A stretch of DNA of 64,000 nucleotides from the IMG/VR virus record IMGVR_UViG_3300017971_000190, positions 1-64,000 of that record; one strand, written 5' to 3'. A program made the position numbers and the translations under genes. The notes under the pieces were generated by a model. The model made no database searches, had not been told where the DNA came from, and saw only the letters and a list, made by a program, of their open reading frames with translations. Positions 1 to 11,303 of this stretch are shown here, piece after piece. Numbering within the stretch: the first letter of the stretch is position 1; the number at the start of each line of letters is the position of its first letter. This DNA comes from a virus.

Positions 1-213
1 ACAACTGAAATGTAATTGATGTTTGCCTTTGATATGGCTGAGGCCTACGTTGAGTAGGAGAGTTCTACCGGTGGGGTCGGGTACCGGGTAGACAACTGAA
101 ATGTAATTGATGTTTGCCTTTGATATGGCTGAGGCCTACGTTGAGTAGGAGAGTTCTACCGGTGGGGTCGGGTACCGGGTAGACAACTGAAATGTAATCG
201 ATGTTTGCCTTTC
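1..213. repeat. 91-bp tandem repeat, 2.3 copies
   Basis: Units start at 1, 92 and 183; the first two are identical over 91 bp and the third diverges after about 31 bp, where the 120-nt RNA at 214 begins. Each full unit holds two hairpins: CCTAC/GTAGG (44-58) and a longer one, 65-72 with 83-91, of 8 bp with one bulged G. The array may extend left of the window. The unit is too long and lacks spacers, so it is not a CRISPR. It could be duplicated RNA modules like the rest of this region. Confidence 0.9.
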
Positions 214-333
214 GTGGGTTTACACAGACTGTGGCTCGCAGAATCTGGGGAAGTAATTGGCGGTGAAGGAAGAAAATGAGCTTGGGGCATCTGGTGAAAC
301 ATCCAGACCGACTTTAACTGCCCGCCAACCCAC
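214..333 (+). ncRNA. Structured 120-nt RNA, copy A
   Basis: The element is closed by GTGGGTT (214-220) with AACCCAC (327-333). Inside are a hairpin at 225-247 (CAGA/TCTG stacked on CTGTG/CGCAG), a second stem GGCGG (259-263) with CCGCC (322-326), and a third CTGG/CCAG hairpin. Copy B at 1307 has the same length and conserved loops but a different inner stem that still pairs (GGTAAG/CTTACC), which is true covariation. I do not recognise the family. It lies directly before a tRNA-like element. Confidence 0.75.
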
Positions 334-341
334 ATAATTTT

Positions 342-427
342 TGAGGGGCTGATGACGGTCAGAGATTGCGACTTTAAACCACAAGTCGCTAGAATTAATA
401 ACTGTGGGTTCGAGTCCCACCCCCTCG
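342..427 (+). tRNA. tRNA-like element, anticodon unclear
   Basis: Acceptor TGAGGGG (342-348) pairs with CCCCTCG (421-427), and a perfect T-arm GTGGG-TTCGAGT-CCCAC directly precedes the 3' strand. The D-like hairpin CTGA-TGACGG-TCAG follows the acceptor with no U8-A9 linker. The anticodon-like arm is GCGACTT/AAGTCGC with an 8-nt loop, so it is too long and no anticodon can be read safely. It could be a decayed tRNA or a tRNA mimic. Confidence 0.5.
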
Positions 428-909
428 TTCCAGCAAGTTCCTAGAACATCTAAGAAGCTGTGATTGTATTGGGTCAGTGGCCTGTGCAGTACACAGTGGA
501 GACGGTTCGTTTAAGGAACGAGCTGCCTTTAGTCGAGATCCCGCGTTGGCGACTAGAGGGTTGGCAGTACCAATGCAGGGGTGCGAGGTGGGTAAGTCGG
601 TCTGGTAGATTTTACCTGTTTGTAATCCAGCGACACCACTTCAATAAATGGGACTAACAGGTCTCAACCATCTTTCGTTGTCACAAGTCGGTTGAGTATT
701 CACAAGATGACAACTAGGAGTGAGGACACTAGCTTGAGTGCTTCAACGGTTTCGGCTCAAGTCCATAGCCCTTCTCCGAAAAATTGATTGAAAACCGTTT
801 ACGCCTACACGGAGTTGGGGGTTCTACAGTTGTAGGAAGAGCTTAAAAACCCAAAGTAACAGGTGGGGCTACCGGGATGTATCTTTCCCTTTCAGTGTAA
901 GCCTGTTGC
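428..909 (+). other. Gene-free, hairpin-rich segment
   Basis: No convincing protein gene is visible. Perfect hairpins occur at 482-496 (CTGTG/CACAG), 561-573 (TTGG/CCAA), 663-696 (CTCAACC/GGTTGAG) and 733-761 (CTTGAG/CTCAAG). Around 595-640 there is a stretch resembling a tRNA D-arm followed by a TGT anticodon loop, but no matching T-arm or acceptor follows. The segment probably carries further structured RNAs of the same kind as its neighbours. Confidence 0.4.
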
Positions 910-967
910 GGTAGGGAGAGTGGTGGACACGCTTGCCCCAACCCTCTACCCGAATTTTTCGTTTTTG
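910..967 (+). terminator. Probable intrinsic terminator
   Basis: GGTAGGG (910-916) pairs with CCTCTACC (944-950) around a 27-nt loop, followed by T-runs at 955-959 and 962-966. The loop contains a GGTGGACACGC stretch typical of leucine/serine tRNA D-arms, so it may be a terminator built on tRNA debris. Confidence 0.5.
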
Positions 968-1039
968 GTAAATGGAAGGTTGGCCTAAAAGCAGCCATCC
1001 TTTAAAGAGTGAGGCGAAGACCTGTTGCTCGGATTTTTG

Positions 1040-1292
1040 CTGTGAGAGGCTTGGGTACGGTTAATCTCACAGGTTCCACGCGAGTCAAAAACGTAAAGTC
1101 GCTTTTTACGTAAATAGATTTGGGAGTGGCTCTCCCTAGCGTGCTGAAACAGGAGTACTTTCGGTTAAGTGAGGAGGCACCCCGGAGACGGTAAGGCCGA
1201 ATCCCTCTTTGGCGTAGCAGCACACCATTTACCTTTTTCAGCCCCGTACCAAGTGTCCTATGGAGTTCGGGTTTAAATACTCCTCTTGGTAC
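1040..1292 (+). ncRNA. Cluster of strong hairpins (structured RNA)
   Basis: There are consecutive perfect hairpins: CTGTGAGA/TCTCACAG (1040-1072), ACGTAAA/TTTACGT (1091-1111), GGGAG/CTCCC (1122-1136), and a two-level hairpin GTACCAAG/CTTGGTAC (1246-1292) enclosing GGAGT/ACTCC. No ORF with a ribosome binding site is seen. The boundaries of the individual RNAs are not defined; this is either one large RNA or several small ones. Confidence 0.45.
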
Positions 1293-1306
1293 GCATTTTC
1301 AACCTT

Positions 1307-1426
1307 GTGGGTGTACTCAGACTGTGGCTCGCAGAATCTGAGGCAGTAATTGGTAAGAGATGAAGCTAATGAGCTTGACACCTGTAAAATAAGTTGCAGG
1401 GTGACTAAAACTGCTTACCAGCCCAC
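1307..1426 (+). ncRNA. Structured 120-nt RNA, copy B
   Basis: This is the second copy of the RNA at 214-333, of identical length. The outer stem is GTGGGT (1307-1312) with GCCCAC (1421-1426), the inner stem GGTAAG (1352-1357) with CTTACC (1414-1419), and the conserved hairpin lies at 1318-1340. Shared single-stranded blocks are AGTAATTGG, AATGAGCTTG and GACTnnAACTGC. Stems differ from copy A but keep pairing. It is followed by a T6 run and a further RNA ending in a terminator. Confidence 0.75.
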
Positions 1427-1431
1427 ATTTT

Positions 1432-1514
1432 TTGAGTTGCCCCCTAAGCACTGGTCTAACGATCCTGCTTAGGTGATCGGGGAGTGGATGGTACCTGAAG
1501 CTCCCCACTTTTTT
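1432..1514 (+). terminator. Two-hairpin RNA ending in terminator
   Basis: CCTAAGC (1443-1449) pairs with GCTTAGG (1467-1473). It is followed by GGGGAG (1479-1484) with CTCCCC (1501-1506) and a T6 tract at 1509-1514, a standard Rho-independent terminator. It ends whatever transcript contains copy B of the 120-nt RNA. Confidence 0.6.
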
Positions 1515-1601
1515 GGAAGATGAACGGGAAGGCCGGGCATTAGTGCACAGTGTCGTACCGGTTCGACTCCGGTTTGGAAATCCAAGTTCTTGGCATCTTC
1601 C
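1515..1601 (+). ncRNA. tRNA-like RNA with displaced T-arm
   Basis: An 8-bp terminal stem GGAAGATG (1515-1522) / CATCTTCC (1594-1601) encloses a perfect T-arm ACCGG-TTCGACT-CCGGT (1557-1573). Unlike a tRNA, an extra hairpin TTGG-AAAT-CCAA (1574-1585) sits between the T-arm and the 3' acceptor strand. No anticodon arm is evident, so it is not a usable tRNA by the normal rules. Confidence 0.45.
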
Positions 1602-1983
1602 TTGAAAAACCGCCAGAGGAATTACACGTTATAATCTGGCCTCTACAGAGAGTAAAAAATGTGAGGTTGTGAGTGCTTTTCCAAAAACTCTCACCCGACA
1701 TAAGTTGGATTTAGTGTCTTGTGCAGTCATAGATGGGAGGCGTTGAACTCTGGTCACCAGGTTGGAGGGAGCCAACAGTGAAATACCATCCATTGGCATT
1801 AAATTGTATAAATACAACAATTTGTGTTGGGTAATTTTCAGTTGCAACCCCTGGGTTCTGAGGTATTTGCCGGTAGCCTGCAGAACAGGGAAGTCCCGTA
1901 GCCGGATGGGTTTGGTAGTAGAACCTCTGACCCTTTTAATTGAGTCAGTAGCTGTACACTAAGAAAAAACTACCACTTTTTCG
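1602..1983 (+). other. Gene-free, hairpin-rich segment
   Basis: No supported ORF. Hairpins: CCAGA/TCTGG (1613-1639), GTGAG/CTCAC (1669-1694, first copy of a dispersed GTTGTGAGTG element), CTGG-TCA-CCAG (1750-1760), GTTGG/CCAAC (1761-1776), TTGTAT/ATACAA (1804-1817), GTTCTG/CAGAAC (1855-1886) and CTGAC/GTCAG (1927-1948). Confidence 0.4.
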
Positions 1984-2049
1984 GAGCCTGTAATTTAAAT
2001 GGAAAAAGAAGCGTTAGCCTATTTCTAGGCTCGAATCCTAGCAGGTTCC
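1984..2049 (+). pseudogene. Shortened tRNA-like element
   Basis: Acceptor GAGCCTG (1984-1990) pairs with CAGGTTC (2042-2048), directly after T-arm CTAGG-CTCGAAT-CCTAG (2025-2041; C replaces the usual first T of the loop). U8-A9 is present. Only 34 nt remain for the D and anticodon arms, about 7 too few, and no 5-bp anticodon stem forms. It is probably a decayed tRNA or an armless mimic. Confidence 0.45.
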
Positions 2050-2304
2050 TTAAAGGGTGTAGTCTCCCTCCTGGGGAAACATTTCCTGGGTTATTTGGCC
2101 ATAAAAGACTACAACGCAAATCGAAAGTGCTTGTTGAATTGATTTGTGTAATCCGAACAAGCAGTTGTGAGTGCTTCTATAAACTCTCATTTGTGAGGTT
2201 CCTGGTTGTCCAAGGATGTAAACAGGTGAGTGCTTGGGTGTGTATTCTCGCTCAAGACTGGGCAGGCGAATTGACGCTAGCGAAGCTTGGCCTCACATTT
2301 TTAA
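2050..2304 (+). other. Gene-free segment with hairpins
   Basis: A long hairpin TGTAGTC (2058-2064) / GACTACA (2107-2113) is followed by the second copy of the GTTGTGAGTG element (2164-2190). A weak promoter-like pair, TTGACG (2271) and CACATT (2294), would start transcription at about 2305, the 5' end of the next tRNA-like element. An overlapping reading frame of about 100 codons (from 2127) has no ribosome binding site and crosses the RNA structures, so I do not call it. Confidence 0.35.
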
Positions 2305-2414
2305 TCCCTATGATAGAGGATCTACTGATCATTCTAGAACGGTCGGTTGGCAGAAAAAGCTTGTTGGACCCAACTTGTTTTTCTGTTGTCCTGGTTCGAT
2401 CCCAGGATGGGGAA
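2305..2414 (+). tRNA. tRNA-like element with giant variable arm
   Basis: Acceptor TCCCTAT (2305-2311) pairs with ATGGGGA (2407-2413), next to a perfect T-arm CCTGG-TTCGATC-CCAGG (2390-2406). Between the anticodon region and T-arm lies a very long hairpin (CAGAAAAA/TTTTTCTG with inner GTTGG/CCAAC), far larger than a Ser/Leu variable arm. The putative anticodon loop ATTCTAGAAC is 10 nt, so TCT (Arg) or even CTA (amber) could be read, neither safely. Confidence 0.45.
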
Positions 2415-2529
2415 CTAAAGCACTTGGTTGTGAGTGATTCCTAAAACTCTCGGTTGTTGGTATACCAGGGTACTAACAATCTTAACACCTGGAAAAGCGT
2501 TTTGGTAGTTATCGTCAATAAATTGCTCT
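2415..2529 (+). other. Third GTTGTGAGTG copy and hairpin
   Basis: The third copy of the dispersed GTTGTGAGTG...ACTCTC element lies at 2427-2452, followed by a CCAGG/CCTGG hairpin (2465-2492). No ORF is supported here. Confidence 0.4.
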
Positions 2530-2580
2530 ACTTGAGTGACGCCGGGCTCTCCTCAAGTGGTAAAACCCGGCAACCTTTTT
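2530..2580 (+). terminator. Intrinsic terminator with overlapping stem
   Basis: GCCGGG (2541-2546) pairs with CCCGGC (2566-2571), followed by T5 (2576-2580). The terminator loop contains CTCAAGT, which is complementary to ACTTGAG just upstream (2530-2536), giving either a pseudoknot or an alternative hairpin that would hide half of the terminator. It closes the 1-2.5 kb RNA region. Confidence 0.75.
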
Positions 2581-2587
2581 ATTTTTC

Positions 2588-2616
2588 TTGACTTCCTTCT
2601 TTTAGCACAGCATAAT
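2588..2616 (+). promoter_or_regulatory. sigma70-type promoter
   Basis: TTGACT (2588-2593), 17-bp spacer, CATAAT (2611-2616). It sits between the strong terminator and the gene at 2649, with a good ribosome binding site following. It matches the promoter pattern seen elsewhere in the window. Confidence 0.75.
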
Positions 2617-2648
2617 AATTGGTGTTAAACAGCTAAAAGGAGTCACAA

Positions 2649-3140
2649 ATGGTGCAGCAACACAAAATCCGAGAAGGCGTCCCCTACACCGATGGTAAAT
2701 CCATCAGAGTTATTGTTGATACTGAAGCTGGGAGTTTTGAGAACGGCACACCCGTGTATTATAGAACCACCCGAGACCTTTTCAAGGAAGTACACGAATG
2801 CTCTTTGGGAGCGTTTGCTCGGTGGGCAACACTGCAACACGAAGAGCTGTCAGATCAAATCGTACTGGCTATTCGCCCAAATAACGGAGCAGATGTTCTC
2901 CCAGACAATCTAGAAACCAGGGTGACAAGGATTTTGAAGACCGAGATTCTGAAAATTGAAGCCGGTTTGGGAACCGTTTCTTTTAATAAAAACGTAATTC
3001 CAGCCAAACTGCTGAGACAGTTGATTCAGGATTACGAAACACTCTACGGCTCAGAAACGCTTAATATCGAAGTAGTTTTCAGTCTTTTCCTTGACGGTGC
3101 GGTGGACCGCACGGAATTCCGGTTTAAGTCTGAACAATAA
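2649..3140 (+). CDS. Hypothetical protein (163 aa)
   Basis: I do not recognise this protein. It is soluble, with no signal peptide, membrane segment or cysteine cluster, and has a mixed alpha/beta composition. The ATG follows AAAAGGAG with ideal spacing. It is the first gene after a clear promoter (2588) and terminator, so it is expressed as its own unit, possibly with the tRNA-Glu region downstream. Its position at the head of an accessory/tRNA block suggests an early protein, but that is inference. Confidence 0.8.
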   Translation: MVQQHKIREGVPYTDGKSIRVIVDTEAGSFENGTPVYYRTTRDLFKEVHECSLGAFARWATLQHEELSDQIVLAIRPNNGADVLPDNLETRVTRILKTEILKIEAGLGTVSFNKNVIPAKLLRQLIQDYETLYGSETLNIEVVFSLFLDGAVDRTEFRFKSEQ

Positions 3141-3230
3141 AGGGAGTTCGAGCTAGCGCTTCTTCCTGAGGGGCTTTGGTCCTGAAAATTCTAGCACACA
3201 CACGCTTTTATCAAGAAAGGAGATAGGATT

Positions 3231-3266
3231 ATGAAGCGCATTCCTGTTAACCTAATCAACCTCTAA
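3231..3266 (+). CDS. 11-codon minigene / leader peptide
   Basis: A perfect AGAAAGGAG ribosome binding site precedes an ATG that opens only 11 codons (MKRIPVNLINL) before TAA. It is immediately followed by a folded RNA (3298-3368) and tRNA-Glu. The strong start signal on such a short frame suggests a leader peptide or attenuator-like role rather than a functional protein; the codons show no run of one amino acid. Confidence 0.4.
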   Translation: MKRIPVNLINL

Positions 3267-3297
3267 CCCTCCCACTTAAAGCTGAGTTAGCACTCAG

Positions 3298-3368
3298 GTC
3301 CGGTTGGTGGACGTACCAGAGGAAGTATTCTGTGTTCGTTGGTACCGACACAGGGTATTAAACCGGAC
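3298..3368 (+). ncRNA. tRNA-like folded RNA before tRNA-Glu
   Basis: An 8-bp terminal stem GTCCGGTT (3298-3305) / AACCGGAC (3361-3368) is followed by a D-arm-like GGT-GGACGT-ACC hairpin and a CTGTG...CACAG arm whose loop starts TTCG, like an enlarged T-arm. No anticodon arm can be drawn. It ends 5 nt before tRNA-Glu, so the two would be processed from one transcript. Confidence 0.4.
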
Positions 3369-3372
3369 ATCT

Positions 3373-3444
3373 GGCCCCATCGTTCAATGGTTAGGACACA
3401 GGATTTTCATTCCTGAGATCGGGTTTCGACTACCCGTGGGGTCA
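3373..3444 (+). tRNA. tRNA-Glu (TTC)
   Basis: This is a full cloverleaf: acceptor GGCCCCA/TGGGGTC, D-arm with GG, anticodon loop TTTTCAT with anticodon TTC, and T-arm CGGGT-TTCGACT-ACCCG, discriminator A, 72 nt. CCA is not encoded, so host nucleotidyl transferase must add it. Confidence 0.95.
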
Positions 3445-3474
3445 ATAAACTATTAAAAGAAAGGTCATACTACA

Positions 3475-3663
3475 ATGGTGGAAAAGGAAAACAGTTTCTA
3501 CAAAGAACAATTTTCTATTTTGCAAAGGCGTCTTCGTGGTTCCATAGAAGAAGCAAAGAAGGAAGGAGACACGAAGAGAGAGATTGCTCTTCTGAGGGTA
3601 GGTTGTGACGTTGCGAACATTTTGAAGGGTGTGAACATAAATTACAACCCTCCTGGTTACTAA
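3475..3663 (+). CDS. Hypothetical small charged protein (62 aa)
   Basis: Not recognised. It is a Lys/Glu-rich, probably alpha-helical small protein with one cysteine and a hydrophobic C-terminal end (NYNPPGY). The start is chosen at the ATG after AAAGAAAGG. It lies between tRNA-Glu and tRNA-Met and ends 7 bp before the latter, so mRNA and tRNA precursors share a transcript. Confidence 0.7.
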   Translation: MVEKENSFYKEQFSILQRRLRGSIEEAKKEGDTKREIALLRVGCDVANILKGVNINYNPPGY

Positions 3664-3670
3664 AAGTTTA

Positions 3671-3743
3671 GGGCTCGTCGTCTAATTGGTAAGGCTCCAA
3701 GCTCATAACTTGGTCATTCGGGTTTCGATCACCCGCGAGCCCA
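3671..3743 (+). tRNA. tRNA-Met (CAT)
   Basis: Acceptor GGGCTCG/CGAGCCC is perfect; the anticodon arm is CCAAG-CTCATAA-CTTGG (anticodon CAT) and the T-arm CGGGT-TTCGATC-ACCCG. The paired G1-C72 end suggests an elongator Met, or an Ile tRNA whose C34 is lysidine-modified; sequence alone does not settle which. Confidence 0.93.
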
Positions 3744-3746
3744 CTA

Positions 3747-3826
3747 TGTTACTGACTACCTGAGACCGCAGCTCAAAGGTTAGTAGCAGAACACCTCAAT
3801 TAAGTGACGGTAGAACACTGAGGTGT
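3747..3826 (+). ncRNA. Hairpins upstream of the 162-nt RNA
   Basis: TGAG/CTCA around 3760-3775 is followed by a perfect 8-bp hairpin ACACCTCA (3791-3798) / TGAGGTGT (3819-3826). The latter abuts the terminal stem of the next RNA and may stack on it coaxially. Confidence 0.45.
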
Positions 3827-3999
3827 GTGCAAGCAGGTACTACCGGGAAACTATTTTCTACCCTGTAACCACGTAGTTCCGAGGAGCACAAAAGAATGAT
3901 CCACCTTTTGTCCCTACCTGGAACTTAGCGTAGTTTCCCGCGTCTTTGGCGAAAGCCGTACTGCGTTGAGGATCAAACCTGCTTGCACTTTTTCTTTTT
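3827..3999 (+). ncRNA. Highly structured 162-nt RNA
   Basis: A perfect 12-bp terminal stem joins 3827-3838 to 3977-3988. Nested inside are GGGAAACTA/TAGTTTCCC (3845-3853 with 3931-3939), AGTTCC/GGAACT (3875-3880 with 3920-3925) and ACAAAAG/CTTTTGT (3888-3911), plus a GNRA-capped hairpin GGC-GAAA-GCC (3948-3957). A T-rich tract (3989-4000) follows, so the closing stem may act as terminator. I recognise no family: it is not RNase P, tmRNA or 6S by any motif I can see. tRNA-Leu begins at 4001. Confidence 0.7.
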
Positions 4000-4000
4000 T

Positions 4001-4082
4001 GCCCACATGGTGGAACAGGTAGACACGCGAATTTTAGGTGTTCGTGGCTAACGCCGTGGGAGTTCGAGTCTCTCTGTGGGCA
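4001..4082 (+). tRNA. tRNA-Leu (TAG)
   Basis: Acceptor GCCCACA/TGTGGGC, D-arm TGGTGGAACAGGTAGACACGC typical of Leu split by its loop, anticodon arm CGAAT-TTTAGGT-GTTCG (anticodon TAG), a class II variable arm, and a T-arm with TTCGAGT. 82 nt, no encoded CCA. Confidence 0.93.
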
Positions 4083-4084
4083 CT

Positions 4085-4174
4085 AGGTCATTCTAATTTT
4101 AAGTCCTGGTAATGGTGCTAGGCAAACGTGACAAGCTTTCCATCCTTCACGTTCGAGAAAAGTTAGAATGACCT
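4085..4174 (+). ncRNA. 90-nt RNA closed by 12-bp stem
   Basis: AGGTCATTCTAA (4085-4096) pairs perfectly with TTAGAATGACCT (4163-4174). Inside is AACGTG/CACGTT (4125-4153), with a possible CCTGG/CTAGG arm, giving a three-way junction. It starts 3 nt after tRNA-Leu and ends 43 nt before the next gene, so it could be a processed small RNA or a leader of that gene. Confidence 0.6.
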
Positions 4175-4217
4175 TAAATTTGTTGGGAGTTTGAGCTAAA
4201 CAAAAGAGGTACTTAAA

Positions 4218-4550
4218 ATGATTTTCACCTATGAGATAAAACGTCACAGTGTGGATTTCCTTTTCGAGGACGGCAGCTTTCATTCAATAGTGGTGGGACA
4301 AGGGCCTGGTTACTGGTACCGAATCATTTCAAAATTGAGAGAGTTGGGAAAAGAGATAAATCCGGAAGACTTTGACCAGGGTATAGAACGTCTATACTAC
4401 GATTACGCCACCGAGGAACTGAGAGGAAAAACAGAAAAGCAGAAAGAATTGGGATACTTTACCTGTCCCCAGTGCAACGTGATTTATCCTTGTCGTTCTT
4501 TCAAATATCAAAATCCTTGCGACAACTGTCGTTATGTAAAAATTACCTAG
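4218..4550 (+). CDS. Zinc-ribbon hypothetical protein (110 aa)
   Basis: The N-terminal 80 residues are unrecognised. The C-terminus carries a zinc ribbon with C83-x2-C86 and C101-x2-C104 (plus C92), which probably binds one zinc ion. Such small phage zinc ribbons often contact nucleic acid or protein partners, but no function can be assigned. The ATG follows AAAAGAGG. The stop is immediately followed by a conserved folded RNA motif (4551). Confidence 0.75.
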   Translation: MIFTYEIKRHSVDFLFEDGSFHSIVVGQGPGYWYRIISKLRELGKEINPEDFDQGIERLYYDYATEELRGKTEKQKELGYFTCPQCNVIYPCRSFKYQNPCDNCRYVKIT

Positions 4551-4612
4551 TCACTTCGTGGTTAGGAGTGGGGCAATGGAATTGAGAAACCCCCTAGAGG
4601 TTATTGGGCAAA
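4551..4612 (+). ncRNA. Conserved 62-nt RNA motif, copy 1
   Basis: It begins with the CAC-TTC-GTG mini-hairpin followed by GGAGTGGGGCAnTGGnATT and ends with GGTTATTGGGCAAA. The same order of blocks recurs at 4888-4950 with different connecting sequence, which suggests a folded RNA under selection. Both copies precede a tRNA or tRNA-like element. Confidence 0.5.
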
Positions 4613-4639
4613 AAAGAAAGCAGGAAAGATAGATTAATA

Positions 4640-4700
4640 GTTCACATGGTAGTTTAGGTACCAGCGGGAAACCGTGTAGGTTCGAGTCCTACTGTGGGCA
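4640..4700 (+). ncRNA. Cloverleaf tRNA mimic without anticodon arm
   Basis: All parts pair: acceptor GTTCACA (4640-4646) / TGTGGGC (4693-4699), a D-like hairpin TGGTA-GTTTAGG-TACCA, a minimal hairpin CGG-GAAA-CCG with a GNRA tetraloop where the anticodon arm should be, and a perfect T-arm GTAGG-TTCGAGT-CCTAC. Discriminator A at 4700. Its 3' end resembles tRNA-Leu at 4001. At 61 nt it cannot decode; it may be a tRNA mimic or decoy, or a tRNA-Leu remnant. Confidence 0.55.
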
Positions 4701-4703
4701 CTA

Positions 4704-4874
4704 GTTGGTAGTTCTGGGAGACCTTGGTGAAACACTCCATGGGAACCCACGGTAAAAACGAGACGTGGTAGGTTGTGTAGGTAACTACAGAGCCCTTCTA
4801 TCTAGTTACTCCTTGAGGGTAACGGGGGTAGTCGGATCTTGTTTTTAGAAACAAGGCCCACCTGAACTACCAAC
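4704..4874 (+). ncRNA. Highly structured 171-nt RNA
   Basis: An 11-bp perfect terminal stem joins GTTGGTAGTTC (4704-4714) to GAACTACCAAC (4864-4874). Internal hairpins are CCACG/CGTGG (4747-4768), TGTAG-GTAA-CTACA with a GNRA loop (4776-4789), GTTAC/GTAAC (4805-4823) and CTTGTTT/AAACAAG (4838-4855). It resembles the RNA at 3827 in size and plan (long closing stem, GNRA hairpin) but not in sequence. Family unknown. Confidence 0.7.
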
Positions 4875-4887
4875 AACTTCTTCCTAA

Positions 4888-5056
4888 GCACTTCGTGTTT
4901 GGGAGTGGGGCACTGGCATTTTAAAGTCCAACTCCATGTGGTTAGGGCAAACCAGTTCAAGACTTGGGCCTTTTGGCTAGCCCAGATGTATTTCTGATTG
5001 CCGACAAGTTACAGGCTGGTTGATACCAATTACCACGAAAGAAAGAGCTAGCCACT
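4888..5056 (+). ncRNA. Conserved RNA motif, copy 2, and hairpins
   Basis: Positions 4888-4950 repeat the CACTTCGTG...GGAGTGGGGCA...GGTTAGGGCAAA motif of 4551. Downstream, TGGGC/GCCCA (about 4964-4985) and AACCAG/CTGGTT form further stems. The segment ends just before tRNA-Ser and contains no ORF. Confidence 0.5.
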
Positions 5057-5059
5057 ATG

Positions 5060-5144
5060 GGAAGGATGACCGAGCGGCTGAAGGTACACGCCTGCTAAGC
5101 GTGCGTAGGGAAACCTACCGAGGGTTCGAATCCCTCTCCTTCCG
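5060..5144 (+). tRNA. tRNA-Ser (GCT)
   Basis: Acceptor GGAAGGA/TCCTTCC, anticodon arm CACGC-CTGCTAA-GCGTG (GCT), long variable arm CGTAGG-GAAA-CCTACCG as expected for class II, T-arm GAGGG-TTCGAAT-CCCTC. Discriminator G, as in bacterial serine tRNAs. Confidence 0.95.
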
Positions 5145-5150
5145 ACGCAG

Positions 5151-5246
5151 TTGGCCCCGCTGCACATCCTATCGAGAATAATTACCACAGATGTGTGTAC
5201 ACAAAGATGCTAGGATCTTTATTTGTGGTGGTTATTCTAGGGGCAA
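5151..5246 (+). ncRNA. Long-hairpin RNA (96 nt)
   Basis: TTGGCCCC (5151-5158) pairs with GGGGCAA (5240-5246) with one bulge. An inner helix of AGAATAA+ACCACA (5175-5189) with TGTGGT+TTATTCT (5224-5238) is broken only by a TT/GG internal loop. It lies between tRNA-Ser and the tRNA-like element at 5249. Confidence 0.55.
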
Positions 5247-5248
5247 TT

Positions 5249-5378
5249 GGCAGAGTGGCGAAACGAAAAGAGGCCCATACTAGTTAACCTCTTTCTTTGG
5301 TAAACGCGCGGTAACTCCGTGATTGGTCAATCAGTTAACTGGTTCACTATCTTCCAGGTTCAAATCCTGGCTCTGTCA
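5249..5378 (+). tRNA. tRNA-like element with ~60-nt insertion
   Basis: Acceptor GGCAGAG (5249-5255) pairs with CTCTGTC (5371-5377), and the perfect T-arm CCAGG-TTCAAAT-CCTGG (5354-5370) is in its correct place, discriminator A. The intervening stretch is about 98 nt rather than 41 and contains hairpins AAAGAGG/CCTCTTT, CGG/CCG and GATT-GGTC-AATC. It is far too short for a group I intron. No anticodon can be assigned. Confidence 0.5.
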
Positions 5379-5461
5379 AGATGCTATCGCATACACTGCC
5401 TTCAAAAAGTGTATTGACAAATTAAAAAATGTTGTCACAAGACTACTAGGAGGTATTAATC

Positions 5462-5632
5462 ATGGAAAGACTTATTTATCGCTTTATTCCTAACGTTGAG
5501 ACCTTAATTGAGCAATACGAGTTGGAAGGTTTCGAGGTGCGGGGATACAGTGAGTACAGTTCTGACGGGATTCCTAGGGTGGCTGAGATGGTCAAGTGGG
5601 TTTCTGATAAACCGTCTCAAGAAAAGGAATGA
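5462..5632 (+). CDS. Hypothetical small protein (56 aa)
   Basis: Not recognised. This short soluble protein starts at an ATG preceded by the very strong ribosome binding site AGGAGGT. It lies between a tRNA-like element and tRNA-Pro. A TTGACA box is present at 5414 but no good -10 follows, so it is probably read with the RNA cluster. Confidence 0.75.
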   Translation: MERLIYRFIPNVETLIEQYELEGFEVRGYSEYSSDGIPRVAEMVKWVSDKPSQEKE

Positions 5633-5657
5633 TTTTTGATTTTCTTCTCTTTCTTTT

Positions 5658-5732
5658 CGGGGAATAACTCAGTCTGGTAGAGTGCCTGCTTTGGGAGCAG
5701 GAAGTTCGCAGGTTCGAATCCTGTTTCCCCGA
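5658..5732 (+). tRNA. tRNA-Pro (TGG)
   Basis: Acceptor CGGGGAA/TTCCCCG, D-arm with CTCAGTCTGGTAGAG, anticodon arm CCTGC-TTTGGGA-GCAGG (TGG), T-arm GCAGG-TTCGAAT-CCTGT. C1-G72 is the usual proline identity pair. No encoded CCA. Confidence 0.95.
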
Positions 5733-5735
5733 TTA

Positions 5736-5768
5736 AGTTTATTTTTCAAAGTACACGAAAAATAAACT
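5736..5768. terminator. Perfect 11-bp A/T hairpin
   Basis: AGTTTATTTTT (5736-5746) pairs with AAAAATAAACT (5758-5768). With A-runs on one arm and T-runs on the other it could terminate in either direction, though GC content is very low; it might instead separate tRNA-Pro from the next tRNA-like unit for processing. Confidence 0.45.
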
Positions 5769-5798
5769 ACCTCACTGGTACAGAGGTTAAAGTACTGT

Positions 5799-5959
5799 GG
5801 ACAAGTGTTGTGCAGAGGGTAGCACAGAGAGTAAGCTAACGAAAAGCGAAACCTGCCGTGCGAGAAGAGCAGGTCCACGGTGTAATCGGAATGCCTCTAG
5901 TGTGGTGCACCACAGCTAGTTTTAATGCCAATGAGAGGTTCGATTCCTCTCCTTGTCCA
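5799..5959 (+). tRNA. tRNA-like element with ~85-nt insertion
   Basis: Acceptor GGACAAG (5799-5805) pairs with CTTGTCC (5952-5958). The D-arm GTGC-AGAGGGTA-GCAC is normal and the T-arm GAGAGG-TTCGATT-CCTCTC is correctly placed (6 bp). Between them lie about 105 nt with hairpins ACCTGC/GCAGGT and GTGGTGCACCAC instead of a 17-nt anticodon arm. It may be a tRNA interrupted in the anticodon region or a larger tRNA-like RNA. Confidence 0.5.
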
Positions 5960-5961
5960 AA

Positions 5962-6205
5962 TGTTGGGTTGGTACTTTACCAACGACAACAGCTTTCTTC
6001 GGGAGCCCGGAAGAAAGGCTTAACCAGCGCCAGTGAGCTTCAATGGGTCGTGCACACACCGCGTTGAAGATGACTCTGGGGTAGTAGGAAGGTGCACAGA
6101 ACGGCAAACTAGGCTTTTCCTAGGTTGGCTTCTAGGCACCGATCCCTCCTTCAGTGGTGTGTGGGGCTTGGTTGTTCGTTCACACAGGGCTCAATTTTAA
6201 AAATT
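5962..6205 (+). ncRNA. Structured RNA between tRNA-like unit and gene
   Basis: Hairpins in series: TTGGT/ACCAA (5969-5983), a long GCTTTCTTC/GAAGAAAGGC arm (5992-6019), CTTCAA/TTGAAG (6038-6069), then GGTGC/GCACC (6091-6140) enclosing AACTAGG/CCTAGGTT (6107-6126). The overlapping reading frames here follow the hairpins and lack ribosome binding sites. Unknown function. Confidence 0.5.
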
Positions 6206-6219
6206 ATTAAAGGTGAAAA

Positions 6220-6417
6220 ATGAAGCTAACTAAAAAACAAGAAAAATTGGTAAAAGAGGTTATTGGAGACGGCACCGATTTTCCAAAATTTACAAACGAC
6301 CCTTATGTTAATCACAGAGTAGACATGCTTGTTTGTGACTGTCCACCTTGGGAGGAGTTGAGTAAGGAAGAGCAAGATTTGTATTTTGAGGAAGTAGAAG
6401 CTTCTAAAATGGAATAA
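6220..6417 (+). CDS. Hypothetical acidic protein (65 aa)
   Basis: Not recognised. The first 20 residues are Lys-rich, then the protein becomes acidic with a C-x-C pair in the middle and an EE-rich helical end. The ATG follows AAAGGTGA. It sits between folded RNA and tRNA-Gln (6439). Confidence 0.7.
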   Translation: MKLTKKQEKLVKEVIGDGTDFPKFTNDPYVNHRVDMLVCDCPPWEELSKEEQDLYFEEVEASKME

Positions 6418-6438
6418 TTATTAATAGTATTGTTTCTT

Positions 6439-6510
6439 TGAGGCGTAGGCAAACGGTAAGCCACGAATTTTTGGTGTTCGGCATTGGAGGTTCGAATCCT
6501 CCCGCCTCAA
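6439..6510 (+). tRNA. tRNA-Gln (TTG)
   Basis: Acceptor TGAGGCG/CGCCTCA, D-arm with AAACGG loop, anticodon arm CGAAT-TTTTGGT-GTTCG (TTG), T-arm GGAGG-TTCGAAT-CCTCC. U1-A72 at the end of the acceptor is typical of glutamine tRNAs. Confidence 0.94.
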
Positions 6511-6512
6511 AA

Positions 6513-6662
6513 ATGAAAAAAGAAAAACCTTTGAAGGATTTACTGCCGAATCCATGTTGTTGCAGTTTTCCCATGGAACCATTGAAAGTAACAAAACCAC
6601 TTAGAGAAAAATTGTGGAAGTGTCTCAAGTGTGGTAAGTTGATCTATAAATACAAAAACTAG
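6513..6662 (+). CDS. Small zinc-ribbon protein (49 aa)
   Basis: A CCC triplet at residues 15-17 and a C-x2-CG pair near residue 38 suggest a small zinc-binding protein. The chosen ATG lies 2 nt after the tRNA-Gln discriminator base, with no ribosome binding site; tRNA 3'-end processing would leave an essentially leaderless mRNA. Reading the frame further upstream would run through the tRNA, so this start is preferred. Confidence 0.5.
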   Translation: MKKEKPLKDLLPNPCCCSFPMEPLKVTKPLREKLWKCLKCGKLIYKYKN

Positions 6663-6665
6663 TGC

Positions 6666-6755
6666 GGAGTGTATAGTGTTTAAATGGCAACACGGCTAGT
6701 GGCTAACGGGTCATACCTGCCAGGCAAAAGTGGGTTCAAATCCTGCAACACTCCA
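6666..6755 (+). tRNA. tRNA-like element, 90 nt, anticodon unclear
   Basis: Acceptor GGAGTGT (6666-6672) pairs with ACACTCC (6748-6754). The D-arm GTGTT-TAAATGGC-AACAC and T-arm GTGGG-TTCAAAT-CCTGC are present, but one extra A separates T-stem and acceptor. The middle contains TCATACC and CTGCCAG (possible CAT or GCC anticodons) without a proper 5-bp stem. Confidence 0.45.
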
Positions 6756-6824
6756 TATAATGTTTAGCGAGAGACAAGCAGTTGGGCTCTCGTGGCGACT
6801 TTGTAGAGGGTGTACAATTTTTCT

Positions 6825-6897
6825 GGGCGATTAACTCAGTTGGCAGAGTGCAATCTTTACGCGGTTGAAGTCACAGGTTCAAACCCTGTATCGCCCA
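6825..6897 (+). tRNA. tRNA-Val (TAC)
   Basis: Acceptor GGGCGAT/ATCGCCC, D-arm CTCAGTTGGCAGAG, anticodon arm CAATC-TTTACGC-GGTTG (TAC), T-arm ACAGG-TTCAAAC-CCTGT, discriminator A. A CGAGAG/CTCTCG hairpin lies just upstream (6770-6792). Confidence 0.95.
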
Positions 6898-6905
6898 AAA
6901 AGAAG

Positions 6906-6934
6906 TTGACTTTACCACTACTCTGTGTTAGCCT
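6906..6934 (+). promoter_or_regulatory. sigma70-type promoter for small RNA
   Basis: TTGACT (6906-6911), 17-bp spacer, TAGCCT (6929-6934) preceded by TGT, an extended -10. Transcription would start at about 6941, immediately before a folded, terminator-ended RNA with no ORF. Confidence 0.6.
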
Positions 6935-6940
6935 TTTCTT

Positions 6941-7053
6941 AATCCGTGAGAGATCAGGCTCAACTGCTCTCACGGGGTTGTCAACGGGGTGGGCCAATCC
7001 CCTGACGGCGGGAGCTGCGTTTCCTTTTGGAAGCAGTCTCCCGTTTTAATTTT
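6941..7053 (+). ncRNA. Stand-alone small RNA (~110 nt)
   Basis: Between its own promoter (6906) and terminator (7009-7053) lie a hairpin CCGTGAGAG/CTCTCACGG and a GGGG/CCCC arm. No start codon with a ribosome binding site is inside. This is the best-delimited small RNA of the region. It lies upstream of the gene at 7073 and could instead be an attenuated leader of that gene. Confidence 0.6.
7009..7053 (+). terminator. Intrinsic terminator
   Basis: CGGGAGCTGC (7009-7018) pairs with GCAG-t-CTCCCG (7033-7043), followed by TTTTAATTTT. It closes the small RNA and separates the RNA region from the following gene block. Confidence 0.8.
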
Positions 7054-7072
7054 AGAAAGGAAACAAAGCACC

Positions 7073-7273
7073 ATGGTAGAAGAAAAAGAAACCTACGAAG
7101 CTATCAATTTTGGTTGGGACGGTGATGATTTTGTAACCGAAGATGTTACAGGCAAAATTCGTCGCTATCACGGTGCCAAAATTACCGACGTTAAGCGAGA
7201 GTGTTCTGTGGAAGTTCAAGACGGTAAAGTGATTGGACACTTTTCGTTTCAATTACCGAAAAAGAAAGGCTAA
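7073..7273 (+). CDS. Hypothetical protein (66 aa)
   Basis: Not recognised. It is a small acidic protein rich in beta-forming residues, ending in a basic KKKG tail. The ATG follows GAAAGGAAACA; longer upstream frames cross the terminator and are rejected. It ends 4 bp before the next gene, suggesting one operon. Confidence 0.7.
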   Translation: MVEEKETYEAINFGWDGDDFVTEDVTGKIRRYHGAKITDVKRECSVEVQDGKVIGHFSFQLPKKKG

Positions 7274-7277
7274 GAGA

Positions 7278-7565
7278 ATGACTATGGTAAAAGAACACGA
7301 ACTTAAGTATGGGGTAGATGGTTGCCTCTTAACCTGGCAAAACCCTTTTCCTGAAGAAGTAACCTGTGCTTGTTGTGGAAAAGAAGGTGCACGTTTAGCT
7401 TTTGTTCTACAAGAATCAGGCAAAAAGGAGCACGCTTGTAATTTATATCAAAACGATCCGGATGGAGAGGGATTTTGGGTGCACGATTCAGCTGCTTTTG
7501 CAGTTTATTTGTGCAGAGATATTAATTGCCCTGAAAAAGCTACCGCTAAGTGGAATCAAGCTTAA
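7278..7565 (+). CDS. Cys-rich zinc-binding hypothetical protein (95 aa)
   Basis: It contains a C30-x-C32-C33 cluster and C79/C84 near the end, spaced as a split zinc site. No known domain. The start at 7278 is chosen because the longer frame overlaps the preceding gene; a second ATG follows 2 codons later. It ends 9 bp before tRNA-Lys. Confidence 0.7.
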   Translation: MTMVKEHELKYGVDGCLLTWQNPFPEEVTCACCGKEGARLAFVLQESGKKEHACNLYQNDPDGEGFWVHDSAAFAVYLCRDINCPEKATAKWNQA

Positions 7566-7574
7566 AATATTTTT

Positions 7575-7647
7575 GGGTCCTTAGCTCAGCTGGTAGAGCA
7601 CCGGACTTTTAATCCGTAGGTCTTCGGTTCAAACCCGAAAGGACTCA
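7575..7647 (+). tRNA. tRNA-Lys (TTT)
   Basis: Acceptor GGGTCCT/AGGACTC with one wobble, D-arm GCTC/GAGC, anticodon arm CGGAC-TTTTAAT-CCG.. (TTT), T-arm TCGGG-like TTCGG-TTCAAAC-CCGAA. Canonical 73 nt. It directly precedes the RNA ligase gene, which may repair cleaved tRNAs. Confidence 0.95.
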
Positions 7648-7762
7648 TTAGTTCACCCATCAGAATAGTAAGTTTTAAGGAGAAAGATCATGAAGAAGAT
7701 TGTGCCTTCAAATTGTTGTAAACAGAATCAAGTATTTAAACTTAAACGAAAGAAGAACTGTT

Positions 7763-8377
7763 TTGAAAACATACCCAAGTATGGTTTATCCTCCCTTTGG
7801 AGGATTGAAGGAGTACCTTCACACCTTTGCTAAGTTGGACGGCAGCAATCTCAGATTTGAATGGAGCAAGAAAAAAGGTTGGTACAAAGTTGGAACCCGG
7901 CATCGTCTTGTAGACGAAAGTGATTCTATTTTTGGAAAAGCTCCCCTTATTTTTCAAGAAACTTTGGCTGACCAGTGCGAGAAAATTTGTAGAGATAATC
8001 GTTGGCAGAGAGCTGTGATTTTCTGCGAGTACTATGGACCACAAAGCTTTGCTGGCCTGCATGAAATTGGAGGTACGATGACGCTAACGGTTATAGACGT
8101 AGCTCCTTACAAAAAAGGCATTTTACCACCTACTGATTTTCTAAAACTGTTTGGAGAATTAGGGCCGCATTACCTGGGATACTTGAAGTGGAATTTTAAT
8201 TTCATAAATCGAGTTCATCAGGGTTTAGAGCCTGAAGCTAGTTTTGAAGGAGTAGTTGGTAAAGCTAAAGGGAAAGGAAATACACTACTTCTCTACAAAA
8301 CCAAAACTCAAGCCTGGAAAGATGAAGTTAAAAAACGATACAGTAAGAAGGAAGCAGAAAAAATAATTCATAGCTAA
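7763..8377 (+). CDS. RNA ligase (nucleotidyltransferase superfamily)
   Basis: The N-terminus has a YPSM motif and then KLDGSN, the motif I nucleophile (K24), followed by a CEYYG element, EGVVGK (motif IV) and a KTK motif V, as in T4 Rnl2-type ATP-dependent RNA ligases. Such enzymes reseal broken RNA, classically tRNAs cut by host anticodon nucleases, and this gene follows tRNA-Lys. I prefer the TTG at 7763; a GTG at 7700 would add 21 unlike residues. A better ribosome binding site serves an ATG at 7690 in another frame (47 codons), so an initiation oddity or frameshift is possible. Confidence 0.85.
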   Translation: MKTYPSMVYPPFGGLKEYLHTFAKLDGSNLRFEWSKKKGWYKVGTRHRLVDESDSIFGKAPLIFQETLADQCEKICRDNRWQRAVIFCEYYGPQSFAGLHEIGGTMTLTVIDVAPYKKGILPPTDFLKLFGELGPHYLGYLKWNFNFINRVHQGLEPEASFEGVVGKAKGKGNTLLLYKTKTQAWKDEVKKRYSKKEAEKIIHS

Positions 8378-8414
8378 GGTAAACATCGATTAACTTTTCA
8401 GAAAGGAAAGCCCT

Positions 8415-8651
8415 ATGTCTATTGTGCGCAAAGCCACTGTTAAGGGTGAAGTGGAAACACCCGCGTGTGAAAAGTGTGGAGAACCCCTAAAGCTGGGTAC
8501 ACGAAAACCCGTTTTTAACCCTTTTCACGAGGGAGCCAAAAAACTAGGCAACGGGTTAATTTGTGAGACCCCCGTTGCTCATGATTATTGGTTTTCCCCT
8601 TGTTCGCATTGCACACCTCCTCATGTAGTAATTAGAAAATTGGTATGCTGA
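8415..8651 (+). CDS. Zinc-ribbon hypothetical protein (78 aa)
   Basis: C18-x2-C21 and C63-x2-C66 form a long-loop zinc ribbon, with an H-rich stretch around the second pair. Family not recognised. The ATG follows AGAAAGGAAAG. Next gene starts 1 bp after the stop. Confidence 0.75.
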   Translation: MSIVRKATVKGEVETPACEKCGEPLKLGTRKPVFNPFHEGAKKLGNGLICETPVAHDYWFSPCSHCTPPHVVIRKLVC

Positions 8652-8652
8652 T

Positions 8653-8946
8653 TTGTCTTCCCGCCGCACCACCAAAAAAGAAAAACATCAGGCCATTTTT
8701 CTTGGTCTCTACACCAATGAAACTGGTTCTGATGTTGTCTACGTTTGGGAAGTTTGTAACGATCTCAAACCTGTTAAAGATTTTGCTGTTTGCTACACCC
8801 CTATTGTTAAAAATGGTAAGATGCTTCGTGGTACTTTTGAACGCATAGCTGATTGGAAAGGGTTTCCTTATTACGGCGGTCAGGAAGAATTTCTAAAACA
8901 TTTTCCTCATAGAGTGGAAAAAATTAAAATAGAGTTTGAGGAGTAG
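8653..8946 (+). CDS. GLYT-domain hypothetical protein (97 aa)
   Basis: A TTG start with no strong ribosome binding site, coupled to the preceding stop. The protein consists of one copy of a module beginning GLYTNE and ending FPHRVEKIKIEFEE. The same module occurs twice in the protein at 10125. Its function is unknown; the conserved pattern suggests a compact beta domain. Confidence 0.7.
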   Translation: MSSRRTTKKEKHQAIFLGLYTNETGSDVVYVWEVCNDLKPVKDFAVCYTPIVKNGKMLRGTFERIADWKGFPYYGGQEEFLKHFPHRVEKIKIEFEE

Positions 8947-8951
8947 TTGTT

Positions 8952-9395
8952 TTGGCTCATCAATTAAATTGGCCTAGTATCAAGTATTTTCTTAAAGATT
9001 ACCTACTAGCTTTGGTCTACGAAGACTACAAACGGTGGCCTTATTGTTGTCAGGGTTTTCTTAAAAAAGAAAGCTACAGTGACTTTTTTTCTGGATTCAA
9101 GACTATTCTAACTAAAGGCTACGTGCCTTATGAAATTAGTGATCTTTGTGATCATCTTGCTCCTTTAATTCTTCCACGTCTCCAACGATTCAGAAAAGTT
9201 GTCTACAGTCATCCGGCTGATATGACTTTCGAAGAGTGGGAAGAAAAATTGGACAAAATGCTCTTTTCTTTTCAATTTGTTGTAGATAGAAGAGGCGATG
9301 ATGTTGGAGCTGACGACGAGAGTACGGCTACGCACAGTCAAGTAGAAGAAGGTTTTCAACTTTTTGGTGCTTATTTTCGCCACCTTTGGCTTTGA
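8952..9395 (+). CDS. Hypothetical protein (147 aa)
   Basis: TTG start 5 bp after the previous stop. It is rich in aromatic residues and predicted alpha-helical, with a conserved-looking block MTFEEWEEKLDKML around residue 96 that I have seen in small uncharacterised phage proteins; no function is known. Its C-terminus overlaps no gene, and a promoter follows at 9404. Confidence 0.7.
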   Translation: MAHQLNWPSIKYFLKDYLLALVYEDYKRWPYCCQGFLKKESYSDFFSGFKTILTKGYVPYEISDLCDHLAPLILPRLQRFRKVVYSHPADMTFEEWEEKLDKMLFSFQFVVDRRGDDVGADDESTATHSQVEEGFQLFGAYFRHLWL

Positions 9396-9403
9396 AAAAG
9401 TTG

Positions 9404-9432
9404 TTGACAACTTGTTAGCACTGTGTAATACT
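9404..9432 (+). promoter_or_regulatory. sigma70-type promoter
   Basis: TTGACA (9404-9409) with TAATAC at 9426-9431 (16-bp spacer) preceded by TGTG. It lies in the 47-bp gap upstream of the gene at 9443; transcription would begin very near that ATG, giving a short or absent leader. Confidence 0.65.
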
Positions 9433-9442
9433 ACTTTTTGTC

Positions 9443-9652
9443 ATGCCATTTTTGTACAAAGTCTCCTACCGTGGTGAGAGAAAGCTGGTAGAAGCCAATT
9501 TTCCTCACCAAGCTTTGAAAAAAGCCTTTCCTGGTTTTAAATTTGAAGCAGGTCTTAGGACCAATGCAGCTCCTCTTACCTTCGTTTATAGTGGACGCAC
9601 TGAAGAAGAGGGCCATGCTGTAGTAGAAGAGCAAGAGGAGTGGTTAACGTGA
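9443..9652 (+). CDS. Hypothetical protein (69 aa)
   Basis: Not recognised. Small, basic at the N-terminus and acidic at the C-terminus. The ATG is about 10 nt beyond the -10 box of the 9404 promoter, so the mRNA may be nearly leaderless. Its end overlaps the start of the following gene by 4 bp. Confidence 0.7.
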   Translation: MPFLYKVSYRGERKLVEANFPHQALKKAFPGFKFEAGLRTNAAPLTFVYSGRTEEEGHAVVEEQEEWLT

Positions 9653-9903
9653 GTAGGGTAGAAGTCAAAGGAAATGGTCGGTACAGTATGGCCTTTGGTG
9701 TTGACCTCTTTCCCTCCATTGGGGCCTTTGTTCAGGTGTGGGACCATACAAAGTACGACATGCCTGACGGCGACAACCTTGTTGAAGAACACGACCGGAG
9801 CACTACGGGTGGATTTAATCTCACTGAAGAGTTTGTAATTCAACTGGCTCGCCGGTACGATATTGATCTAGACCCCAGAGAAGTGTGGGAAGTTTTTGAC
9901 TAA
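9649..9903 (+). CDS. Hypothetical protein (84 aa)
   Basis: The GTG at 9649 is chosen because AGAGGAG lies about 9 nt upstream; a GTG at 9640 would sit on top of that site. Acidic soluble protein with no recognised motif. Overlap with both neighbours suggests translational coupling. Confidence 0.65.
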   Translation: MSRVEVKGNGRYSMAFGVDLFPSIGAFVQVWDHTKYDMPDGDNLVEEHDRSTTGGFNLTEEFVIQLARRYDIDLDPREVWEVFD

Positions 9904-10099: not shown

Positions 10100-10124
10100 C
10101 CAAATTTCAAGGAGAACAAACCTT

Positions 10125-10740: not shown

Positions 10741-10745
10741 CTCTC

Positions 10746-11033: not shown

Positions 11034-11037
11034 AGAG

Positions 11038-11238: not shown

Positions 11239-11247
11239 TTTTTAAAG

Positions 11248-11276: not shown

Positions 11277-11303
11277 TTAGAAATCGAAAGGAAAGTGTGA
11301 CCC

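What the first reader, a model, noticed from the sequence alone, without database searches (positions are those of the whole stretch)
214..1426. Two 120-nt RNAs with compensatory stem changes
Copies at 214-333 and 1307-1426 have the same length, the same conserved loop blocks and two stems whose bases differ but still pair (GGCGG/CCGCC versus GGTAAG/CTTACC; GTGGGTT/AACCCAC versus GTGGGT/GCCCAC). This is covariation within one genome and strongly implies a functional RNA family I do not recognise.
Basis: seen in the sequence. Interest (0 to 1): 0.85.

Follow-up and report, generated by a model that had tools for sequence, protein, structure and literature searches.

The report
Orphan RNA pair beside rRNA mimics
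A giant bacterial virus carries two related copies of an unknown folded RNA inside a cluster of RNA genes that also holds look-alikes of two working parts of the bacterial ribosome, which suggests that such viruses make RNA imitations of their host's protein factory.

Summary
The two 120-nt copies (c1 214-333, c2 1307-1426) are real, ungapped and identical in 85 of 120 columns. With two sequences the covariation is suggestive, not strong. Rfam has no match. A covariance model of the pair finds only c1 and c2 in its own record and nothing credible in 56 other phage records, so the 'family' is an orphan pair. The copies lie in a noncoding, tRNA-rich array (about 1-7650) at the start of a 221,679-bp jumbo-phage record. 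The same array holds a free-standing copy of the 23S GTPase-associated centre (970-1230, uL11 site, with a domain inserted in H44), a copy of the uL1-site segment (1720-1794), and seven perfect T-arms outside called tRNAs. The GTPase-centre element is a covarying RNA family: 43 of 43 IMG/VR contigs found by pattern, and six isolate phages, carry it; Rfam does not hold it. Most likely c1/c2 is a further trans-acting RNA aimed at host translation, but it resembles no rRNA tested, so its target is unknown (confidence 0.35). The mimics beside it are the larger discovery.

The parts
214..333 (+). RNA copy c1 (120 nt). P1 214-219/328-333; P2 hairpin 225-233/237-247; P3 259-263/322-326; possible crossing helix 250-254/317-321
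1307..1426 (+). RNA copy c2 (120 nt). P1 1307-1312/1421-1426; P2 hairpin 1318-1326/1330-1340; P3 1352-1356/1415-1419; possible crossing helix 1343-1347/1410-1414
1..212 (+). 91-bp tandem repeat, 2.3 copies; its first 30 bases (one mismatch) directly precede c1
342..427 (+). tRNA-like element right after c1 (perfect T-arm at 404, 7-bp acceptor partner at 342, abnormal anticodon arm); tRNA-Sec model below threshold
970..1230 (+). GTPase-associated-centre (uL11 site) mimic of 23S rRNA with a domain inserted in H44
   Evidence: 97.2 bits with model R2, built without it
1720..1794 (+). Mimic of 23S 2107-2180, the uL1-site segment
2305..2413 (+). tRNA-like element: perfect T-arm at 2390, acceptor partner at 2305
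   Evidence: anatomy read by eye
4640..4699 (+). Short tRNA-like element: acceptor, D-like arm, 4-bp arm in place of an anticodon arm, perfect T-arm
5249..5377 (+). Long tRNA-like element: perfect T-arm at 5354, acceptor partner at 5249
3372..7648 (+). Eight tRNA genes (Glu, Met, Leu, Ser, Pro, Gln, Val, Lys) interleaved with other noncoding DNA and small frames
7700..8377 (+). RNA ligase gene at the edge of the array
   Evidence: PHROG 548, E 2.7e-7; no Pfam or PDB match

Best explanation
c1 and c2 are paralogous noncoding RNAs of a jumbo phage. SHOWN: two copies with a likely common fold (closing stem P1, invariant hairpin P2, covarying stem P3), without a long reading frame, inside a tRNA array that also encodes mimics of the GTPase-associated centre and of the L1-site segment of 23S rRNA. 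INFERRED: c1/c2 is transcribed, folds into a compact domain, perhaps with an H-type pseudoknot beside P3, and acts in trans by binding a host factor of translation or tRNA handling (a ribosomal protein, a translation factor or a tRNA/rRNA nuclease) and drawing it from its normal RNA partner, as I infer for the neighbouring mimics with uL11 and uL1. Which factor c1/c2 binds is not known.
For: Same-length paralogues with three double-compensated P3 pairs and alifold energy matched by 1 of 500 shuffles. No ATG-started frame above 59 aa in 1-2640. Same array as the GTPase-centre mimic and the L1-site mimic, and seven T-arms outside called tRNAs against 0.17 expected. The GTPase-centre element is a covarying RNA found in many phages, so translation-directed RNAs are a feature of such arrays.
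Against: The role of c1/c2 is argued from neighbours only: best alignments to E. coli 16S, 23S and 5S are at the shuffled level and R1 scores no more than 8.6 bits on the E. coli rRNA locus. No homologue was found, so its fold rests on two sequences; three controls are weak (8%, 3%, 53 of 500), c1 is not unusually stable and the c2 minimum-energy fold lacks P3. The possible pseudoknot lacks one pair in c1 and has no covariation. GTPase-centre arrays in 46 other records lack c1/c2 at E up to 1. Promoter and terminator scans were at chance and no expression data were available.
Confidence: 0.35

Rival explanations
1. c1/c2 is a cis-acting processing element or a self-cleaving ribozyme that frees neighbouring RNAs from a long array transcript.
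For: c1 ends nine bases before a tRNA-like element (343-426) and both copies lie among many RNA elements; compact multi-helix fold with a possible pseudoknot.
Against: No Rfam family, and so no curated ribozyme class, matches at E up to 5 in 1-2660. c2 has no perfect T-arm directly behind it, and other tRNA-like elements have no copy beside them.
Confidence: 0.15
2. c1/c2 is a decoy or antitoxin RNA against a host defence nuclease or a toxin, unrelated to ribosome mimicry, comparable to type III antitoxin RNAs or tRNA decoys.
For: Compact RNA with a possible pseudoknot, present twice, next to a tandem repeat and tRNA-like elements; an RNA ligase gene stands at the edge of the array.
Against: No toxin or nuclease partner was identified or searched for here; no sequence match to a known antitoxin RNA in Rfam.
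Confidence: 0.2
3. The copies are duplicated array debris or a decaying repeat without function.
For: Only two copies, in one genome; tandem repeats and odd tRNA-like elements nearby; c1 alone is not unusually stable.
Against: Length is kept exactly, changes are uneven (a 23-nt block is identical while other blocks diverge), and P3 stays paired through three double changes.
Confidence: 0.2
4. The conserved block AATGAGCTTG is a start codon with a ribosome site before it, and c1/c2 is a leader with a very short reading frame.
For: Both copies have ATG AGC TTG at column 63, giving MSLGHLVKHPDRL and MSLTPVK before a stop; c1 has AAGGA upstream.
Against: The peptides share only three residues and differ in length (13 and 7 aa). 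No ATG-started frame above 59 aa lies in 1-2640, so there is no evident gene to lead.
Confidence: 0.1

Closest known systems
GTPase-associated centre of 23S rRNA (uL11 site)
   Same: The neighbour at 970-1230 keeps both halves, the closing stem and H43
   Different: Free-standing, with an insert in H44; c1/c2 itself shows no similarity to it
L1-site segment of 23S rRNA
   Same: Window 1720-1794 aligns with E. coli 23S 2107-2180 and keeps 16 of 16 pairs
   Different: Free-standing in a phage array; c1/c2 shows no similarity to it
rRNA mimicry in ribosomal-protein mRNA leaders (recalled; a review on it was seen only as a reference title)
   Same: An RNA that copies a ribosomal-protein site of rRNA
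   Different: Leaders act in cis on ribosomal-protein mRNA; the phage elements stand outside such genes. c1/c2 is not shown to copy anything
Phage tRNA arrays, with tRNA-like elements
   Same: Same place, same strand, between ordinary tRNAs
   Different: c1/c2 has no T-arm motif and no tRNA call

Membership tests
Any Rfam 15 family (for c1/c2) | Covariance-model match | tested here: not met
   None at gathering scores, none over c1 or c2 at E up to 5
tRNA or tmRNA (for c1/c2) | T-arm and ARAGORN or Rfam call | tested here: not met
Ribosomal-protein leader RNAs (for c1/c2) | Match to a leader family curated in Rfam | tested here: not met
   for whatever leader families Rfam 15 holds; leaders not in Rfam were not tested
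rRNA mimic (for c1/c2) | Sequence similarity to 16S, 23S or 5S rRNA above chance | tested here: not met
   Best scores 26 versus shuffled means 23.2 (16S), 25.7 (23S); E. coli rRNA only; R1 on the E. coli rRNA locus at most 8.6 bits
rRNA mimic (for c1/c2) | Binds the protein partner of an rRNA site | not testable with these tools
   needs pull-down
Multi-phage RNA family (for c1/c2) | Homologues in other phages that keep the stems | tested here: not met
   0 of 46 records at E up to 1, 0 of 1 at E up to 5, 1 weak hit in 9 further records, inside a coding gene; near relatives of the window may be left out of the collections
GTPase-associated-centre mimic (window 970-1230) | Both 23S halves, closing stem and H43 pairing | tested here: met
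GTPase-associated-centre mimic (window 970-1230) | Binds uL11 | not testable with these tools
   needs a binding assay
L1-site mimic (window 1720-1794) | Alignment with 23S 2107-2180 and kept pairing | tested here: met
   score 75 versus best shuffled 38; 48 of 48 cells paired, five pairs with double changes

The most novel reading that the evidence does not exclude
Phages of many lineages encode trans-acting RNA copies of ribosomal functional centres. This jumbo phage carries at least two (the uL11/GTPase centre and the uL1 site), and c1/c2 is a third, twofold member that imitates a translation-related RNA in three dimensions without keeping its sequence.
Probability: 0.25. Interest if true: 0.92.

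Novelty: new variant of a known kind. Interest (0 to 1): 0.7.

Why it matters
rRNA mimicry is known to me in cis, in ribosomal-protein mRNAs. Free-standing phage RNAs that copy the GTPase-associated centre and the L1-site segment, mostly in or near tRNA arrays, would be a separate way for viruses to reach the host ribosome or its regulation. The GTPase-centre element occurs in isolate phages of Pseudomonas, Aeromonas and Xanthomonas, so the idea can be tested now. c1/c2 adds an unplaced RNA in the same array whose partner one pull-down could reveal.

Tried and rejected
Relatives of c1/c2. The exact 23-mer in IMG/VR gave 0. A gapped pattern gave 4 hits whose flanks, read by eye, show none of the other c1/c2 blocks; R1 was not run on these four loci. 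ATGAGCTTG...GACTNNAACTG gave 23 stretches; R1 on all 23 found at best 10.3 bits, E 4.9. A third looser pattern gave 0. Two genome contigs patterns gave 0. blastn at E up to 10: c1 with its tRNA-like neighbour against phages gave 179 records, of which I saw 20, all short matches, mostly to the tRNA-like part; c2 against phages gave 3 short matches; c1 against plasmids gave 4. R1's best foreign hit in fetched loci is 15.4 bits, E 0.67, on the strand opposite to the RNA genes of L061. In phage NCTB R1 gave 16.5 bits, E 0.144, inside an annotated coding gene. All were rejected as chance.

Relatives of the phage. DNA polymerase and terminase found no relative in IMG/VR. The nearest annotated phages are remote (terminase 25-30% in the 25 of 95 records shown). 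Of seven large-phage records so chosen, none has the GTPase-centre pattern at up to 3 mismatches.

Other readings. c1 as a 16S central-domain mimic: its best 16S alignment falls at 653-716 but at chance level. The sub-threshold c-di-GMP-II match at 1727-1796 overlaps the L1-site mimic. Paenibacillus phage Pd_22F matches both 23S segments about 1 kb apart, as ordinary 23S would, so it was left out. L092 is ordinary 23S over 2356 bases. L091 carries an L1-site segment but at the very start of its contig, so a chimera is not excluded. Promoter- and terminator-like sites were at the shuffled level (9 versus 8.8; 10 versus 8.1). R2 also gave six weak hits of at most 16.1 bits that I did not follow. 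The 38% of paper searches that returned long lists were judged from titles and abstract starts.

Full report
What was checked. The window is bases 1-64000 of an IMG/VR virus record of 221,679 bases. Terminase and portal are phage-like, with remote relatives among large phages such as PaBG, NCTB and Motura (terminase 25-30% identity in the 25 of 95 records shown). Both ends of the record run into repeats (end printed), so the array may continue beyond base 1. Region 1-2640 has no ATG-started frame above 59 aa; with GTG or TTG starts the longest is 105 aa, at 2127-2444. Eight tRNAs occupy 3372-7648.

The two copies. c1 (214-333) and c2 (1307-1426) align without gaps and are identical in 85 of 120 columns. 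They are the only copies in the record (also with filters off for 1-12000). P1, P2 and P3 appear in the c1 minimum-energy fold and in the c2 centroid; the c2 minimum-energy fold keeps P1 and P2 but pairs GCAGU with ACUGC in place of P3. P3 has three pairs changed on both sides, P1 one pair changed on one side, P2 none. The GCAGU/ACUGC helix (columns 37-41 with 104-108) could instead coexist with P3 as an H-type pseudoknot; it is complete in c2, lacks one of five pairs in c1 and shows no covariation. Statistics are mixed: alifold 1 of 500 shuffles, z -3.1; random-letter tests 8% and 3%; pair-dealing control 53 of 500; single-sequence z -0.6 for c1 and -3.5 for c2.

No known family, no relatives. 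Rfam gives nothing over the copies. A covariance model from the pair, R1, scores c1 and c2 at 144.5 and 136.7 bits and nothing else above 15.4 bits in 56 sources. It finds none at E up to 1 in 46 whole records that carry the GTPase-centre element (43 IMG/VR records and 3 isolate phages), none in the L1-segment contig, and in nine further whole records one weak hit inside a coding gene. Pattern scans of IMG/VR and of the species-genome collection gave nothing convincing. The tools warn that records very near the window may be left out, and a fragment can lack a gene, so a missing sister phage is not excluded.

What lies beside them: the GTPase centre. blastn of 1-2640 against phages at E 1e-5 hits only within 972-1228, in five records of four Pseudomonas phages. 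Against E. coli genomes at E up to 10 there are five matches, all in 23S rRNA, from 973-1011. The element reads like the GTPase-associated centre: GGAAGGTTGGCCTAAAAGCAGCCATCCTTTAAAGAGTG, an insert, then TTTGGCGTAGCAGCACACC and a closing stem. A pattern from its first half finds 43 IMG/VR contigs. In all 43 fetched loci the longest alignment to the two 23S references is 30-55 nt, so none shows the surrounding 23S. Both halves are found in 41 of 43 by regular expression and in the other two, L052 and L053, by covariance model. Several are near-duplicates (L043 is an IMG/VR copy of pf16 by length): over IMG/VR, isolates and window there were 45 elements with 30 distinct end pairs, of which 29 were counted for the closing stem (L041 was dropped because its 5' end is cut). 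Five of six closing pairs vary with double changes; the sixth is always G-C; 25 to 29 of 29 rows pair at each position. On 14 sequences without the window, 96.4% of cells pair, with 37 double-changed cells against a shuffled mean of 10.2 and 0 of 500 shuffles as high; the count of pairs with any double change is not exceptional (6 versus 4.5, 89 of 500). Model R2 from these 14 finds the window element at 97.2 bits, UNO-G1W1 at 125.2, Milchi at 115.0, Aeromonas phage 4_4572 at 93.4, XacN1 at 67.7, and the right place in E. coli 23S (bases 1050-1099) at 44.8. With Astolliot and pf16, which are in the alignment, six isolate phages carry it. In one search they account for 8 of 28 records; the other 20 are annotated 23S, unannotated records or Pd_22F and were not tested one by one. 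In XacN1 the element lies between two genes and is followed by a hairpin and T run that look like a terminator (letters, by eye). A gathering scan of 14 loci that carry it lists only tRNA and tmRNA families, so Rfam 15 does not hold it.

The second mimic. Window 1720-1794 aligns with E. coli 23S 2107-2180, score 75 versus a best of 38 in 60 shuffled segments. With E. coli and contig L091 it keeps 48 of 48 cells paired over 16 pairs, five of them with double changes, in a structure I read off the E. coli letters. That 2107-2180 belongs to the uL1 site and 1051-1108 to the uL11 site is recalled ribosome anatomy. blastn of the window segment against phages gave no match, and of the E. coli segment gave 16 records that are annotated 23S, unannotated, or Pd_22F. 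One IMG/VR contig has such a segment at its very start.

tRNA-like elements. Perfect T-arm motifs occur 15 times on the + strand of 1-7700: eight in called tRNAs and seven elsewhere (404, 1557, 2390, 4676, 5354, 5934, 6730). Dinucleotide-shuffled non-tRNA sequence gives a mean of 0.17 and a maximum of 2; the minus strand gives none; 7701-64000 gives three, one inside the tRNA at 59131. Five of the seven have a matching 7-base acceptor strand in the range searched.

Reading. The array holds RNAs that imitate parts of the translation apparatus, so a translation-directed role in trans is the most likely job of c1/c2. This is inference from neighbours: c1/c2 itself shows no rRNA similarity, and the GTPase-centre phages lack it. 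uL11 and uL1, the recalled partners of the two mimics, are encoded in one operon in E. coli (recalled). A jumbo cyanophage encodes both proteins (PMC13157829, passages read), so phages do engage this part of the ribosome by another route.

Print. Eight searches for phage rRNA mimics, GTPase-centre or L11-binding phage RNAs, L1-stalk decoys, 23S fragments in phages and phage structured RNAs listed no paper that by title or abstract start describes these elements; the library is open-access and holds no preprints. Passages only were read in PMC12509530, PMC10931766 and PMC13157829. Subscription papers were not seen, so a prior report remains possible.

Verdict. The surroundings, above all a phage copy of the ribosomal GTPase-associated centre found in many phages, are the more important result.

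Noticed in passing
window 970-1230; IMG/VR loci L025-L067; phages Astolliot, pf16, UNO-G1W1, Milchi, 4_4572, XacN1: Free-standing copy of the 23S GTPase-associated centre with a variable domain (61-312 nt) inserted in H44; closing stem covaries; not in Rfam 15.
   Followed up: yes
window 1720-1794; L091 13-67: Free-standing copy of the 23S L1-site segment, with compensatory changes in its stems; a similar segment stands at the very start of contig L091.
   Followed up: partly
window 342-427, T-arm at 1557, 2305-2413, 4640-4699, 5249-5377, T-arms at 5934 and 6730: tRNA-like elements with perfect T-arms but no ARAGORN call; some have very short or very long cores.
   Followed up: partly
window 1-212: 91-bp tandem repeat at the contig start; its first 30 bases, with one mismatch, also precede c1.
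   Followed up: no
window about 4556-4600 and about 4883-4925: Two similar hairpin elements seen by eye (CACTTCGTG ... GGAGTGGGGC); not analysed.
   Followed up: no
window 11575-12426 and 7700-8377: A protein with a PARP catalytic-domain match (Pfam PF00644, E 6e-13) and an RNA ligase (PHROG 548) near the array.
   Followed up: no
L003, L004, L025, L059, L094 and window about 1166-1226: The 3' part of the insert in the GTPase-centre element (GGCACCCCG ... GGTAAGGC) is itself conserved among the Pseudomonas- and Aeromonas-phage elements, by eye.
   Followed up: no
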